From positions 1 through 46,666 of IMG/VR virus record IMGVR_UViG_3300045049_000126: a stretch of DNA of 46,666 nucleotides, one strand, 5' to 3'. Below the pieces are notes generated by a model. The model made no database searches. It had not been told where the DNA came from and saw only the letters and a program-made list of their open reading frames with translations. Each line of letters begins with the position of its first letter. The first letter of the stretch is position 1. The position numbers were made by a program, and so were the translations under genes. Shown here piece after piece: positions 12,649 to 21,534 of this stretch. The DNA is from a virus.

Positions 12649-13251
12649 ATGAATAGAAATACTGTTCCACTCATAGAAGACTTTGGTAATCCTCGATTTG
12701 ATAGAGTACCTATCTCTGCACTCCTCAAACATCCTCAGAATTACAAGAAACATCCTCCTGAGCAGCTTACTAAGCTAAAAGCGTCGTTACTCCGATTCGG
12801 ACAAGTCAAGCCTGTAGTAGTCCAGAAAGTAGCAGGAGCGGAGCAATACTTAATCCTGGCTGGACACGGTGTTACACAAGCTGCGATGGAATTGATTGCT
12901 GAGTATCCACATAATGAGCGTGTACAGATGTGGCGCGACTCCTTCGCTATCGTGATCGTCCCGTCTACCTGGACAGCAGAGGACGCGGCGGGATATCTTG
13001 TAGCAGACAACAAAATAGCGGAGCTGGCAGAGGATGACGAGCTTTTACTAGCTGCGTTATTGGAGGAGCAAAGGAGCAGCGGCGCGGACCTCGCAAGTGT
13101 CGGATATAGTGAGCAGGAGTTAGACGAACTGTTAGAAAGACTTGCAGAGGAAGAATTAAACTTCGCTCCTGGTAATATAGACGATCAATCCTCCATTGAT
13201 CAAAAATCCCCTGTCCATTGTCCTAAATGCGGCGCGGAGTTCGTACCATGA
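12649..13251 (+). CDS. ParB-like nuclease/CTPase-domain protein with zinc ribbon
   Basis: 200-residue protein. Residues ~17-120 match the ParB/Srx-type N-terminal fold: VPISALLKHPQNYKKH, then LKASLLRFGQVKPVVV, then ILAGHGVTQAAMEL (the G-x-R/H box area). The C terminus ends in a single CPKCG knuckle. In phages such genes lie beside DNA-modification genes, as here: the next gene's ATG overlaps this stop (ATGA). The function in those operons is not settled (DNA binding, nicking or CTP-dependent clamp). It is the first gene of the operon after promoter 12482 and leader 12516-12610. A weak GTGAG ribosome site precedes ATG. Confidence 0.8.
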   Translation: MNRNTVPLIEDFGNPRFDRVPISALLKHPQNYKKHPPEQLTKLKASLLRFGQVKPVVVQKVAGAEQYLILAGHGVTQAAMELIAEYPHNERVQMWRDSFAIVIVPSTWTAEDAAGYLVADNKIAELAEDDELLLAALLEEQRSSGADLASVGYSEQELDELLERLAEEELNFAPGNIDDQSSIDQKSPVHCPKCGAEFVP

Positions 13252-14024
13252 AATCATCTCTCAAGAATGTTAACTTAAAGATTGATTGGGCGTCCTATCA
13301 GGCCGCAGAGTACGCTTGTAAACACTGGTATTACAATCCGACTATTCCGCGCGCAGGACTGGTAAAAATTGGAGCATGGGAAGATGGGAAGCTCGTAGGA
13401 GTCCTGATATTCAGCAAGGGCGCAAACAACAATCTAGGCAAACCTTATGGATTGACACATACTGAATGCTGCGAACTAACACGACTTGCTTTTACCTCGC
13501 ACAAGTCACCGATGACGCGCATACTCCGCATAGCTATCAATAACTTCCTCTTGAAAAAATGTCCTAATATCCGTCTGATCATTACCTATAGTGATAAAGA
13601 GTATCATCATGGTGGCATCTATCAAGCTGCTAACTGGTATTTTTTAGGGGAGACAGGAGGAGACGATGATTATATTTATCGCGGGAGACGTTATCACGGA
13701 CGCGCGTTCCGCTCAACGTTCGGACACATCGGCAAATATCGAGATGAAATAGAGATTGTTAAGAGCGGATCGAAATACAGATATGCGCTACCTCTTGACG
13801 AAGAAATGAAAGAGCTTATAATGAGCATGGCGAAATCGTATCCTAAACGCGCTATTGGTGTCAACGGTAACACATCTGCTATCCAGGCAGAGGACAGCGG
13901 TTCAACTCCGACTATAGCGCTCCTCTCCTCTAATGCTCAATCCATCATCGAAACTTTTGCTATTCCTCCGCAGCTTATAGGCGCTATATCAGATAATCCT
14001 GTTACTAATGAAAAGGATCAATAG
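13248..14024 (+). CDS. Mom-like DNA modification protein (GNAT fold)
   Basis: 258-residue protein resembling phage Mu Mom and its phage relatives, GNAT-fold enzymes that alter adenine in DNA (carbamoylmethylation in Mu) and so protect against restriction. Supporting segments: AAEYACKHWYYNPTIPRAGL, VGVLIFSKGANNNLG, the characteristic CCELTRLAF near residue 70, SRIL-type SPMTRILRIAI, then YHHGGIYQAANWYFLGETGG and a basic YHGRAF. The last 60 residues are low-complexity and extra. I start at 13248, where ATGA overlaps the ParB-like stop. The tight coupling to a ParB-like and a methyltransferase-like gene supports a modification operon. The exact base modification cannot be read from sequence. Confidence 0.78.
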   Translation: MKSSLKNVNLKIDWASYQAAEYACKHWYYNPTIPRAGLVKIGAWEDGKLVGVLIFSKGANNNLGKPYGLTHTECCELTRLAFTSHKSPMTRILRIAINNFLLKKCPNIRLIITYSDKEYHHGGIYQAANWYFLGETGGDDDYIYRGRRYHGRAFRSTFGHIGKYRDEIEIVKSGSKYRYALPLDEEMKELIMSMAKSYPKRAIGVNGNTSAIQAEDSGSTPTIALLSSNAQSIIETFAIPPQLIGAISDNPVTNEKDQ

Positions 14025-19297: not shown

Positions 19298-21340
19298 ATG
19301 GAGAGCAGACTTATACACGGAGAAGCACTAGACGAACTGCGCAAACTTGATAGCAATAGCGTTGATGCTATTATTTGCGATCCTCCTGCGGGTATTTCGT
19401 TTATGGGTAAAGAGTGGGACAATCCTAACTATTTTCCACTTAGAGAGCGCAAGAACGGACAAAATAGCACTTTCGGTAAATCAATGACAAATGGTCCTGA
19501 ATGGAGCTACAGCAAGAAAGCGCGCGATACCTTCATAGCATTCCTATCTGAAATCATGCACGAAGCATTACGCGTCCTCAAGCCAGGAGGTCACGCGCTC
19601 GTCTGGAGTATACCGCGTACATCGCATTGGACAGCAACGGCATTAGAGGATGCTGGATTTGAGATAAGAGACTCCATAGCACATGTGTTCTCACAAGGCT
19701 TTCCTAAATCTCTAGACATTTATAAAGCAGCCAGTAAAGCCGGTTTATGTTGCACTTGCCAAATATATGATGTACAATATCCCCAAACAAAGGAAGAGGT
19801 ATATCATGGCAAAGAAGACACTCCCAACGACAAAGATATGCAAGATTTGCAATCAAGAATGGACTCCGAAAACTCGCTTTCAGGCTGCGAGAAATCAGAC
19901 ATGCAGTCCAGCATGCAATCAGCAATTAGTAAGTCAAACGAAAAAGAGCAAACCGTTAACTATGCTCGTCTGCCTGAATTGCGGTCAAGAATTCAGACCG
20001 AAAAGTCATACATCATTGAAGAAAGCCAAGTTTTGCAATCAAGCATGCAACGCTCAATACAGGACGAAAGATCCGGCGTATGTGGAACATTTGAAGCAAA
20101 TAGCCCCAACTGGACGGGCGGGCTGGTCGGAAGAGACGAAGCAAGCGTACAGCCTCAAGAACATGGAAGAGAACAATCGAGCATGGAAGGGTGGTGTAAT
20201 GCTCAAGAGGACACACGGCAATTATCAGGGAGTGACGTATGTGAGATGTCCACAGGAGTATCTACTAATGGCGCGCAAGGATGGTTATGTAATGGAGCAT
20301 CGGCTAGTGATGGCTCAACACATGGGGAGATGCTTAACAAGGGAAGAAGTAGTACATCACATAGATCACAATCCGAGCAACAATCACATCAGCAACTTGC
20401 AACTATTCCCGAACAACGCAGCGCACAAACGTGCGGAAGGTGCGGAAAAGCGATTATTCAAGCAGGAATAGGTACTGCGCTCAAGCCAGCACATGAAACA
20501 TGGTGGCTTTGTCGCAAACCTATCGAGGAGGACTCGATTGCTGCGAATGTGCTTGAATGGGGCGTCGGAGCGCTCAATATCGACGCAACGAGGATAGGAA
20601 CGGACGAAGATACAACACGTCCGACAAGTAAAGATGGTATGGGATATCATAAAGGATCTTACAGAGAGAAAACAGGAGGACACGATCAAGGAAGATGGCC
20701 TTCAAATCTCCTCCTCTCTCACACGCTCCTATGCAACGAGGAGGACGGATGCGCGGAGGATTGTCCAGTTGCGGAGATGGATCGACAGAGCGGAGCTAGC
20801 AAGAGCACAGACAGGCCCAGGAATAATAATCCTCATACTCCTAACGCCTACGGTAGTTTTAATGGGCGCGTTACACATGGACACAACGATCAAGGCGGCG
20901 CGTCTCGCTACTTCCAACAATTCTACTACTGCGCAAAAGCTAGCAGGAGAGAACGTAATGCAGGATGCGAGGAATTAGCGGAGATTGAAACCTCTCAAAT
21001 TACCAATAGGAAGCCGGGAAGTATTGGACTCGTTGGCAATCCAGATAATAAAGGACAGACAGGGAATCCATATGCTAGCACGTCCGGGGCTGCTCGTAAT
21101 AACCATCATCCAACCGTAAAACCTGTAGCGTTGCTTAGATATTTCGTCAGGATGATTACACCTCCTGATGGTATTGTACTCGATTGTTTCGGAGGATCGG
21201 GCACGACTGCACTAGCATGCATTGCTGAGCACAAACGCTATATCCTCATTGAACGAGAAGAAGAGTACATAGAGATTGCACGCGCCAGGATCAACTATGC
21301 TCTAAAGTCTGCTTGTCTAGAGTCGAATCAGAATCACTAG
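19298..21340 (+). CDS. DNA (N4-cytosine or N6-adenine) methyltransferase gene interrupted by a nested HNH gene
   Basis: 680-codon frame for a beta-class DNA methyltransferase. Motif IV DPPAGISFMGKEWD near residue 30 is typical of phage enzymes; HVFSQGFPKSLDIYKA follows near residue 130. The SAM-binding motif I, LDCFGGSGTTALACI, lies near residue 625, and HHPTVKPVALL precedes it. Between GLCCTC (~150) and CGRCGK (~380) lies about 230 residues of Ser/Gln/Met-rich sequence unlike any methyltransferase. It coincides with an HNH endonuclease gene in another frame. An uninterrupted protein would be about 450 residues, with C-C-x-C and C-G-R-C-G-K brought together. The frame stays open through the insert, so a longer, possibly active protein could be made. 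The gene's 3' end overlaps a tRNA remnant. Confidence 0.82.
   Translation: MESRLIHGEALDELRKLDSNSVDAIICDPPAGISFMGKEWDNPNYFPLRERKNGQNSTFGKSMTNGPEWSYSKKARDTFIAFLSEIMHEALRVLKPGGHALVWSIPRTSHWTATALEDAGFEIRDSIAHVFSQGFPKSLDIYKAASKAGLCCTCQIYDVQYPQTKEEVYHGKEDTPNDKDMQDLQSRMDSENSLSGCEKSDMQSSMQSAISKSNEKEQTVNYARLPELRSRIQTEKSYIIEESQVLQSSMQRSIQDERSGVCGTFEANSPNWTGGLVGRDEASVQPQEHGREQSSMEGWCNAQEDTRQLSGSDVCEMSTGVSTNGAQGWLCNGASASDGSTHGEMLNKGRSSTSHRSQSEQQSHQQLATIPEQRSAQTCGRCGKAIIQAGIGTALKPAHETWWLCRKPIEEDSIAANVLEWGVGALNIDATRIGTDEDTTRPTSKDGMGYHKGSYREKTGGHDQGRWPSNLLLSHTLLCNEEDGCAEDCPVAEMDRQSGASKSTDRPRNNNPHTPNAYGSFNGRVTHGHNDQGGASRYFQQFYYCAKASRRERNAGCEELAEIETSQITNRKPGSIGLVGNPDNKGQTGNPYASTSGAARNNHHPTVKPVALLRYFVRMITPPDGIVLDCFGGSGTTALACIAEHKRYILIEREEEYIEIARARINYALKSACLESNQNH
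19750..19778 (+). promoter_or_regulatory. Internal promoter for the nested HNH gene
   Basis: TTGCAC (19750-19755), 17 nt, TACAAT (19773-19778), near the left edge of the insert, so the endonuclease may be expressed independently. Confidence 0.45.
19806..20471 (+). CDS. HNH homing endonuclease nested inside the methyltransferase gene
   Basis: 221-residue protein read in a different frame from the surrounding gene. The N terminus has two zinc-finger-like repeats (CKICNQEW...CSPAC and CLNCGQEF...CNQAC), used for DNA binding. The middle is basic. The C-terminal HNH core contains GYVMEHRLVMAQHMGR, EEVVHHIDHNPSNNH (catalytic His-His plus Asn) and ISNLQLFPNNAAHK. GGAAGAGG is seven bases before ATG 19806, and an internal promoter precedes it. 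The stop lies about 30 bases into the resumed methyltransferase sequence. Free-standing HNH genes spread by cutting the uninterrupted allele, which fits its position inside a conserved gene. Confidence 0.88.
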   Translation: MAKKTLPTTKICKICNQEWTPKTRFQAARNQTCSPACNQQLVSQTKKSKPLTMLVCLNCGQEFRPKSHTSLKKAKFCNQACNAQYRTKDPAYVEHLKQIAPTGRAGWSEETKQAYSLKNMEENNRAWKGGVMLKRTHGNYQGVTYVRCPQEYLLMARKDGYVMEHRLVMAQHMGRCLTREEVVHHIDHNPSNNHISNLQLFPNNAAHKRAEGAEKRLFKQE

Positions 21341-21383: not shown

Positions 21384-21385
21384 AG

Positions 21386-21457
21386 TGGGGCGAAAGGAAT
21401 CGAACCATTGACCTCTCAACATAAAAGATGAGCGCTCTACCTCTGAGCTACTGCCCC
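21386..21457 (-). tRNA. tRNA-Lys (UUU)-like, partly degraded
   Basis: 72 nt, minus strand: acceptor GGGGCAG, D arm GCTCAGAGGTAGAGC, anticodon loop CTTTTAT (anticodon TTT), T loop TTCGATT, 3' end CGCCCC-A. Three defects are visible: a one-base bulge in the anticodon stem, a T-T mismatch in the T stem, and one missing base in the 3' acceptor strand. It may be non-functional. Confidence 0.55.
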
Positions 21458-21458
21458 G

Positions 21459-21534
21459 TTGCGACGGTGAGATTTGAACTCACGTTCTCAGGATCATGAG
21501 TCCTGCGGGGGAAACCTGACTCCCCTACGCCGCA
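21459..21534 (-). tRNA. tRNA with anticodon CAT (Met or Ile2)
   Basis: 76 nt, minus strand. Acceptor TGCGGCG/CGTCGCA (one G-U), D stem GGGG/CCCC, perfect anticodon stem CAGGA/TCCTG with loop CTCATGA, T stem GTGAG/CTCAC with loop TTCAAAT, discriminator A. All arms are intact. Anticodon CAT could be Met or, if lysidine-modified, Ile. It is separated from the tRNA-Lys-like gene by one base. Confidence 0.88.

What the first reader, a model, noticed from the sequence alone, without database searches (positions are those of the whole stretch)
19298..21340. HNH endonuclease gene nested out of frame inside a methyltransferase gene that stays open throughout
The 666-bp HNH gene (19806-20471) with its own promoter splits the methyltransferase between a CC-x-C and a CGRCG zinc-like site. 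Yet the methyltransferase frame has no stop across ~230 codons; in random sequence that would be very unlikely. Either the host enzyme tolerates a Ser/Gln-rich insert (dual-frame coding under selection), or the interval is removed. The HNH C terminus is encoded by resumed methyltransferase sequence.
Basis: partly seen in the sequence, partly recalled or inferred. Interest (0 to 1): 0.78.

Follow-up and report, generated by a model that had tools for sequence, protein, structure and literature searches.

The report
Hidden HNH nuclease inside phage methyltransferase
A selfish DNA-cutting gene sits inside a phage DNA-methyltransferase gene in a different reading frame, and the shared stretch is kept free of stop codons so both proteins can be read; the kind was published in 2025, but this is a different and much wider-spread version, usually bounded by two cysteine pairs.

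Summary
A 680-codon methyltransferase (MTase) frame (19298-21340) stays open across an HNH gene (19806-20471) read in the +1 frame. Synonymous shuffling predicts 10.3 stops there and 0 are seen (0 of 1000 shuffles).

It is not an isolated case. 76 of 80 viral loci with a relative of this HNH are nested in the same MTase family, all in +1: 0 host-frame stops against about 553 expected. About 43 lie in an intein at one MTase site. The others, like the window, have no splicing domain and sit in a dispensable loop (19 residues in uninvaded homologues, 2-3 in CcrM). There, an upstream C-x(1,2)-C and a downstream C-x2-C-G usually bound the insert.

Where the MTase is instead split into two ORFs, the HNH's other frame is full of stops. 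In mycobacteriophages an analogous insert is 98.8-99.9% identical between phages whose flanking exons are 65-97% identical, and two phages carry in-frame deletions that remove the HNH core.

Best reading: a homing HNH element kept translatable in its host's frame and tolerated unspliced. The general kind is published ('ShiLan domain', 2025). This is a new variant: different site, frame, flanks and nuclease family. RNA removal is not supported, nor is an HNH promoter.

The parts
19298..21340 (+). Host gene: CcrM-like (PF01555) DNA methyltransferase, one open frame of 680 codons including the insert
   Evidence: ORF and Pfam; fold match to CcrM / M.BceJIV across the insert
19298..19711 (+). MTase N-terminal part up to GFPKS; motif IV variant DPPA at 19379-19390
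19712..20470 (+). Site II loop holding the insert, between GFPKS and GTALKPAHE; 19-157 residues (GFPKS to LKPA) in uninvaded homologues; exact insert edges within it not set for the window
19748..19759 (+). Upstream Cys pair in the MTase frame (CCTC)
   Evidence: upstream C-x(1,2)-C present in all 38 evaluable loci found by the downstream pair, window included
19790..19799 (+). Plausible Shine-Dalgarno (AAGGAAGAGG) of the HNH gene
   Evidence: sequence; not a general feature of the family
19806..20471 (+). HNH endonuclease gene (221 aa), +1 relative to the MTase frame
   Evidence: HNH_3 and PHROG HNH families; weak match to a PADLOC homing endonuclease model; AF2 pLDDT 86.6
20346..20411 (+). 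HNH catalytic motif EVVHHIDHNPSNNHISNLQLF
   Evidence: conserved across 29 homologues
20432..20443 (+). Downstream Cys pair in the MTase frame (CGRC, then GKAIIQAG), encoded by the same DNA as the HNH C terminus
20471..21340 (+). MTase C-terminal part from GTALKPAHE, with the SAM-binding FGGSG motif (GGSG 21191-21202)

Best explanation
The window holds a mobile homing element: an HNH endonuclease gene that has invaded a dispensable loop of a phage CcrM-like DNA methyltransferase gene. Shown by sequence: the HNH is read in the +1 frame and behaves as the constrained frame in related pairs; the MTase frame across it is held free of stops by choice of synonymous HNH codons; the MTase core is intact on both sides; and in the window's Cys-type relatives each insert is bounded in the MTase frame by a C-x(1,2)-C pair upstream and a C-x2-C-G pair downstream. 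Inferred: the insert is not spliced but stays in the MTase as a long disordered loop whose two Cys pairs bind one zinc and hold the loop ends together, so that the enzyme still folds and works; the HNH is translated separately from an internal start; and the HNH cuts insert-free MTase alleles so that the element is copied in by recombination. When the endonuclease decays, in-frame deletions leave a short Cys-bounded remnant, comparable to a mini-intein.
For: Stop avoidance: 76/80 loci with no host-frame stop; 0 against about 553 expected stops over 66 distinct HNHs, 0 T / 723 C at stop-risk boundaries against 1213 T / 855 C elsewhere, and 0 T / 274 C in a second set. Controls: non-nested relatives have 67 stops against 65 expected, and in L077 and L091 the MTase is split at this site. 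Dispensable loop. Cys pairs co-occur in all 38 evaluable loci, against none near GFPKS in about 69 uninvaded loops. HNH is the more conserved frame. In mycobacteriophages the analogous insert is 98.8-99.9% identical against 65-97% for the flanks. In-frame loss of the HNH core in Abrogate, Oogway and L220. MTase fold continues across the insert.
Against: No cutting, translation or zinc data. The insert is poorly modelled, and coordinates of the Cys pairs could not be inspected. Several site II members lack one or both Cys pairs, so the clamp is not required in all. An internal ribosome-binding site is not general. Mobility was shown on a different HNH family in mycobacteriophages, not on the window's own. 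The DPPA motif leaves MTase activity in doubt. No empty sister of the window phage was found.
Confidence: 0.75

Rival explanations
1. The insert is a self-splicing RNA intron (group I or II) carrying an HNH gene and is removed before MTase translation.
For: HNH genes are common in phage group I introns (established knowledge); the insert interrupts a conserved gene.
Against: No Rfam intron match at gathering or relaxed threshold. The HNH fills nearly the whole insert. RNA removal gives no reason for zero host-frame stops in 66 HNHs. In-frame deletions keep the MTase frame.
Confidence: 0.05
2. The insert is a degenerate or unusual intein removed by protein splicing.
For: Close relatives of the HNH sit inside true inteins at a neighbouring MTase site, also out of frame.
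Against: In the window no block A, B, F or G, no C-terminal HN or GN before a Cys/Ser/Thr, and no intein model match. The insert lies at another site.
Confidence: 0.05
3. The insert is a degraded invader: the MTase is dead, and the open frame is left over from an ancestor.
For: The MTase has DPPA in place of DPPY (also in L003 and L006); phage MTases of this kind can be dispensable (PMC11855218).
Against: Zero stops in dozens of divergent copies needs continued selection. Both MTase halves keep conserved motifs. DPPA occurs also in uninvaded L003, so it does not come from the insert.
Confidence: 0.12
4. The open frame is a by-product of HNH composition and codon use, i.e. chance.
For: Some high-GC members have few expected stops (e.g. 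L088, mean 2.6).
Against: 0 stops against about 553 expected in the family; 0/1000 shuffles for the window; non-nested relatives have stops at the expected rate.
Confidence: 0.01

Closest known systems
ShiLan domain (Arsenault, Gosselin & Gogarten, Genes 2025, PMC11855218)
   Same: HNH gene hidden out of frame in an insert of a phage DNA methylase; methylase frame open throughout; no intron or intein signature; patchy distribution; predicted loop.
   Different: Inserted elsewhere (after LKPSHEPVVVARKP, with that stretch repeated), HNH in the third frame (+2) with a GTG start and no RBS, another HNH sequence. No Cys pairs bounding the insert are described. L006 looks like this type.
PF01844 HNH element of mycobacteriophages (Molly gp60/61, Violet gp57, Applejack gp54/55)
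   Same: Same MTase loop, +1 frame, bounded by CDC and CSWCG; an out-of-frame HNH is noted in GenBank for Violet and in PMC12613952 for Applejack.
   Different: Unrelated HNH family (PF01844 against HNH_3) and a different phage group.
Inteins with homing endonucleases; mini-inteins
   Same: Mobile endonuclease within a protein gene, host frame continuous, loss of the endonuclease by in-frame deletion. Relatives of this HNH lie hidden out of frame inside inteins of the same gene family.
   Different: The window has no splicing domain, and the endonuclease is in another frame rather than fused in frame.
HNH homing endonucleases of group I introns (e.g. I-HmuI)
   Same: HNH nuclease presumed to drive mobility.
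   Different: No intron RNA found.
Rickettsia palindromic elements (from memory)
   Same: In-frame inserts retained in the protein product.
   Different: Those carry no endonuclease gene.

Membership tests
ShiLan-type hidden-HNH insertion (broad kind) | Out-of-frame HNH ORF inside a phage DNA methylase gene whose own frame stays open | tested here: met
ShiLan-type hidden-HNH insertion (broad kind) | No detectable intron or intein | tested here: met
ShiLan domain proper | Site after LKPxHEP...ARKP and HNH in the third frame | tested here: not met
   window site is before GTALKPAHE and the HNH is at +1
Intein | Splicing blocks A, B, F, G and terminal residues | tested here: not met
   present in about 43 relatives at another site
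Group I/II intron | Intron RNA structure | tested here: not met
HNH homing endonuclease | HNH domain with catalytic His and Asn | tested here: met
HNH homing endonuclease | Cuts the insert-free allele and drives copying | not testable with these tools
   indirect support from insert against flank identity in an analogous element only
CcrM-like (beta-class) DNA MTase | PF01555 with SAM motif FxGxG and catalytic DPPY | tested here: inconclusive
   PF01555 and FGGSG met; the catalytic motif reads DPPA
Zinc-clamped insert (proposed here) | Paired Cys motifs at both ends of the insert in the host frame | tested here: met
Zinc-clamped insert (proposed here) | The four Cys bind one zinc | not testable with these tools
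   pairs co-occur in all evaluable loci; no coordinates or metal data

The most novel reading that the evidence does not exclude
A third way for a homing element to live inside a protein gene, beside introns and inteins: an unspliced insert whose own ends encode two Cys pairs that clamp it into the host protein as a zinc-closed loop, while its endonuclease is read from another frame of the same DNA. The same HNH family also lives hidden out of frame inside inteins of the same gene family, so it appears able to change its route of host tolerance.
Probability: 0.5. Interest if true: 0.82.

Novelty: new variant of a known kind. Interest (0 to 1): 0.63.

Why it matters
Overlapping coding in phages is usually argued one case at a time. 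Here dozens of distinct gene pairs show total stop avoidance, with split-gene relatives as a natural control, so dual-frame selection is directly measurable. It suggests that a selfish nuclease can be tolerated inside an enzyme without splicing, which would widen what counts as a protein-embedded mobile element. It also explains some puzzling phage annotations (long Ser/Gln-rich methylases, overlapping HNH calls). The intein-housed versions mean that inteins which seem to lack an endonuclease may hide one in another frame.

Tried and rejected
HNH promoter: consensus hits at chance level. General Shine-Dalgarno at nested HNH starts: 17 of 78 when the best of several starts is taken, 1 of 18 (the window) at homology-defined starts, control 5.6%; the window has one, the family does not in general. 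RNA families: nothing beyond tRNAs; a weak DnaX frameshift match (14.2 bits, cut-off 35, E 3.7) treated as chance. Close relatives of the window region in phage records: only tRNA hits, so window-specific insert edges could not be set from an empty sister. PDB fold search with the HNH model: nothing significant; PDB sequence search: none. HNH tree: too few columns to resolve one or several site switches; L104 was mislabelled 'free' in it although it is of the intein type. My first host-motif scripts had wrong patterns and were replaced. Automatic intein/zinc labels miss variants (L063, L068, L078 read as inteins by eye), so class counts are approximate. The HNH regex missed the intact HNH of L233; corrected counts outside the window: 34 with +1 HNH, 2 antisense, 1 core-deleted, of 37. 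The 40 loci include near-duplicates (31 distinct HNH ORFs, window included).

Full report
CHECK. The MTase frame 19298-21340 (680 aa, PF01555 in both halves) and the HNH gene 19806-20471 (221 aa, HNH_3) are as described. The HNH is at +1 relative to the MTase. The third frame holds 17 stops over the HNH stretch and the MTase frame none. Permuting synonymous codons of the HNH gives on average 10.3 MTase-frame stops, and zero in none of 1000 permutations. A stop arises in the MTase frame only when an HNH codon ending in T precedes a codon starting AA, AG or GA. In the window, two-fold T/C codons end in T in 0 of 15 such places and in 24 of 36 others. No promoter near the HNH start exceeds chance; an SD-like AAGGAAGAGG lies at 19790-19799.

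A FAMILY. Of 80 viral contigs with an HNH relative, 76 have no stop in the same relative frame and lie inside long open frames with the GFPKS and LKP motifs of the same MTase family wherever the frame is complete enough to see them. Over 66 distinct nested HNHs (the window and L001 included) there are 0 host-frame stops against about 553 expected: the printed total of 618 includes about 65 for four non-nested ones, which actually have 67. At stop-risk boundaries the count is 0 T / 723 C, elsewhere 1213 T / 855 C, and in the non-nested relatives 39 T / 19 C at risk. A second set, HNHs taken at Cys-bounded sites and partly overlapping the first, gives 0 T / 274 C.

NATURAL CONTROLS. In L077 and L091 the HNH lies at the same MTase site, but the MTase is split into two ORFs; there the HNH's other frame is full of stops. 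L060 lies after another MTase. In L020/L040 an antisense HNH also splits the gene. So the open frame goes with continuous translation of the MTase, not with the HNH as such.

TWO SITES. Site I, directly before SGFPKS, holds an intein: CLSEDTEI..., SRNHRC......VWCVTVPTGAFVARRNGKIFVTGN/SGFPKS. The HNH is hidden inside it in 40 loci by automatic label, plus at least three more read by eye; Pfam and NCBIfam see intein signal only weakly and in a few. The megaphage record LR756508 (L104) is another. Site II, used by the window, lies between GFPKS and GTALKPAHE. Empty homologues have there a loop of 19-157 residues counted from GFPKS to LKPA, and solved CcrM has 2-3 residues between the corresponding motifs (NPMPN-FKGTRFANAHET). 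The loop is therefore dispensable. HNHs of the two sites interleave in a poorly resolved tree.

THE CYS PAIRS. A search using only the downstream Cys pair and GxG[TS]ALKP, blind to the HNH, found 40 viral loci. Three are cut off upstream. All 37 others have an upstream C-x(1,2)-C 9-21 residues after the start of GFPKS, as has the window (17). 34 carry an HNH in +1 (33 by the script plus L233). Two (L210 and its near-copy L237) carry an open MTase frame with the HNH on the opposite strand (checked in L210). One (L220) has lost the HNH core but keeps both pairs and the frame. Of about 69 uninvaded loops none has such a pair near GFPKS. An unrelated HNH (PF01844) in mycobacteriophages is bounded in the same way at the same place (CDC ... 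CSWCG), and in L019 an HNH at another MTase site is bounded by CPQC ... CPHC. This pattern suggests that the element brings a zinc-ribbon-like closure. Zinc binding itself is inferred, and some site II members lack the pairs.

SELECTION. In eleven pairs of related elements, HNH-frame identity in the overlap is 70-93% and MTase-frame identity 42-79%. MTase codon position 3 (HNH position 2) is the least variable position inside the overlap, or nearly so, in all pairs; outside it is the most variable in all eleven. So the HNH sequence is conserved, while the MTase frame is mainly kept open. AlphaFold2 of the MTase frame gives a confident core and a largely disordered insert. Foldseek aligns it across the insert with CcrM and M.BceJIV (target TM up to 0.78). 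The HNH model has mean pLDDT 86.6.

MOBILITY AND DECAY. Mycobacteriophages give near-isogenic comparisons. Slagathor and HanKaySha are empty; Molly, Violet, SG4, Optimus, StellaBean, Tasp14 and Applejack carry the PF01844 element. The insert is 98.8-99.9% identical between them while 5' exons are 81-97% and 3' exons 65-90% identical, as expected from recent homing. Abrogate and Oogway carry deletions of 447 and 462 nt with different breakpoints that remove the HNH core, keep the MTase frame and keep both Cys pairs, the counterpart of mini-inteins. This is evidence on an analogous element, not on the window's own family.

MECHANISM. Most likely the HNH cuts insert-free MTase alleles and is copied in. 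The host survives because the loop is dispensable, the frame is kept open, and, probably, the insert's ends close on a zinc. Shown: frame, stop avoidance, loop dispensability, Cys co-occurrence, insert against flank identity. Inferred: cutting, internal translation, zinc, unspliced product.

KNOWN OR NEW. The general kind is published: the ShiLan domain (PMC11855218), preceded by PMC9957025, with out-of-frame HNHs also noted for Violet (GenBank note) and Applejack (PMC12613952). The ShiLan domain is at another site and in the +2 frame. In the papers read I found no mention of the Cys bounding, the family-wide stop test, HNHs hidden inside inteins, or core-deleted forms. The related preprint (bioRxiv 10.1101/2025.01.02.630785) could not be read. 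Hence: new variant of a known kind.

Noticed in passing
window 19379-19390; L003; L006: The MTase catalytic motif reads DPPA instead of DPPY/F/W; the same in uninvaded L003 and in ShiLan-like L006, so it is not caused by the insert. Activity or specificity may be altered.
   Followed up: partly
L022-L058 and others; L104:1921-4275: Inteins in the same MTase family with an HNH gene hidden in their +1 frame, the intein frame open throughout.
   Followed up: partly
L077:2155-3664; L091:1124-2704: MTase split into two ORFs by a free-standing HNH at the window's site.
   Followed up: yes
L210; L020/L040: HNH on the opposite strand inside the MTase: L210 with the MTase frame open and Cys pairs kept, L020/L040 with the MTase split.
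   Followed up: partly
L019:4962-7103: HNH nested at another MTase site (just before VVLDPFSGTGTT), bounded by CPQC and CPHC.
   Followed up: no
L107 (Mycobacterium phage Constella) 1647-3074: A C5-cytosine-type methyltransferase gene with an annotated HNH gene nested in the +2 frame.
   Followed up: no
L198, L199 (phages Abrogate, Oogway): Core-deleted inserts (447 and 462 nt lost, in frame), annotated only as DNA methyltransferase.
   Followed up: yes
L200 (phage Rutherferd) about 911-2521: MTase with nested HNH present as open frames but not annotated at all in the record.
   Followed up: no
window 13227-14024 and 12649-13251: Mom-like DNA modification protein next to a ParB-like protein, upstream of the packaging genes; the phage also has an integrase (1828-2877, - strand).
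   Followed up: no
window 21385-21534: Two tRNA genes on the - strand directly after the MTase (tRNA-Met and one with an odd four-base anticodon call).
   Followed up: no
L003:5004-7079: MTase beside a portal gene, as in the window, without the insert but with repeated Cys-containing segments (ECxxxCPIxxLNxQSG...GGAARFFQ) in its C-terminal part.
   Followed up: no
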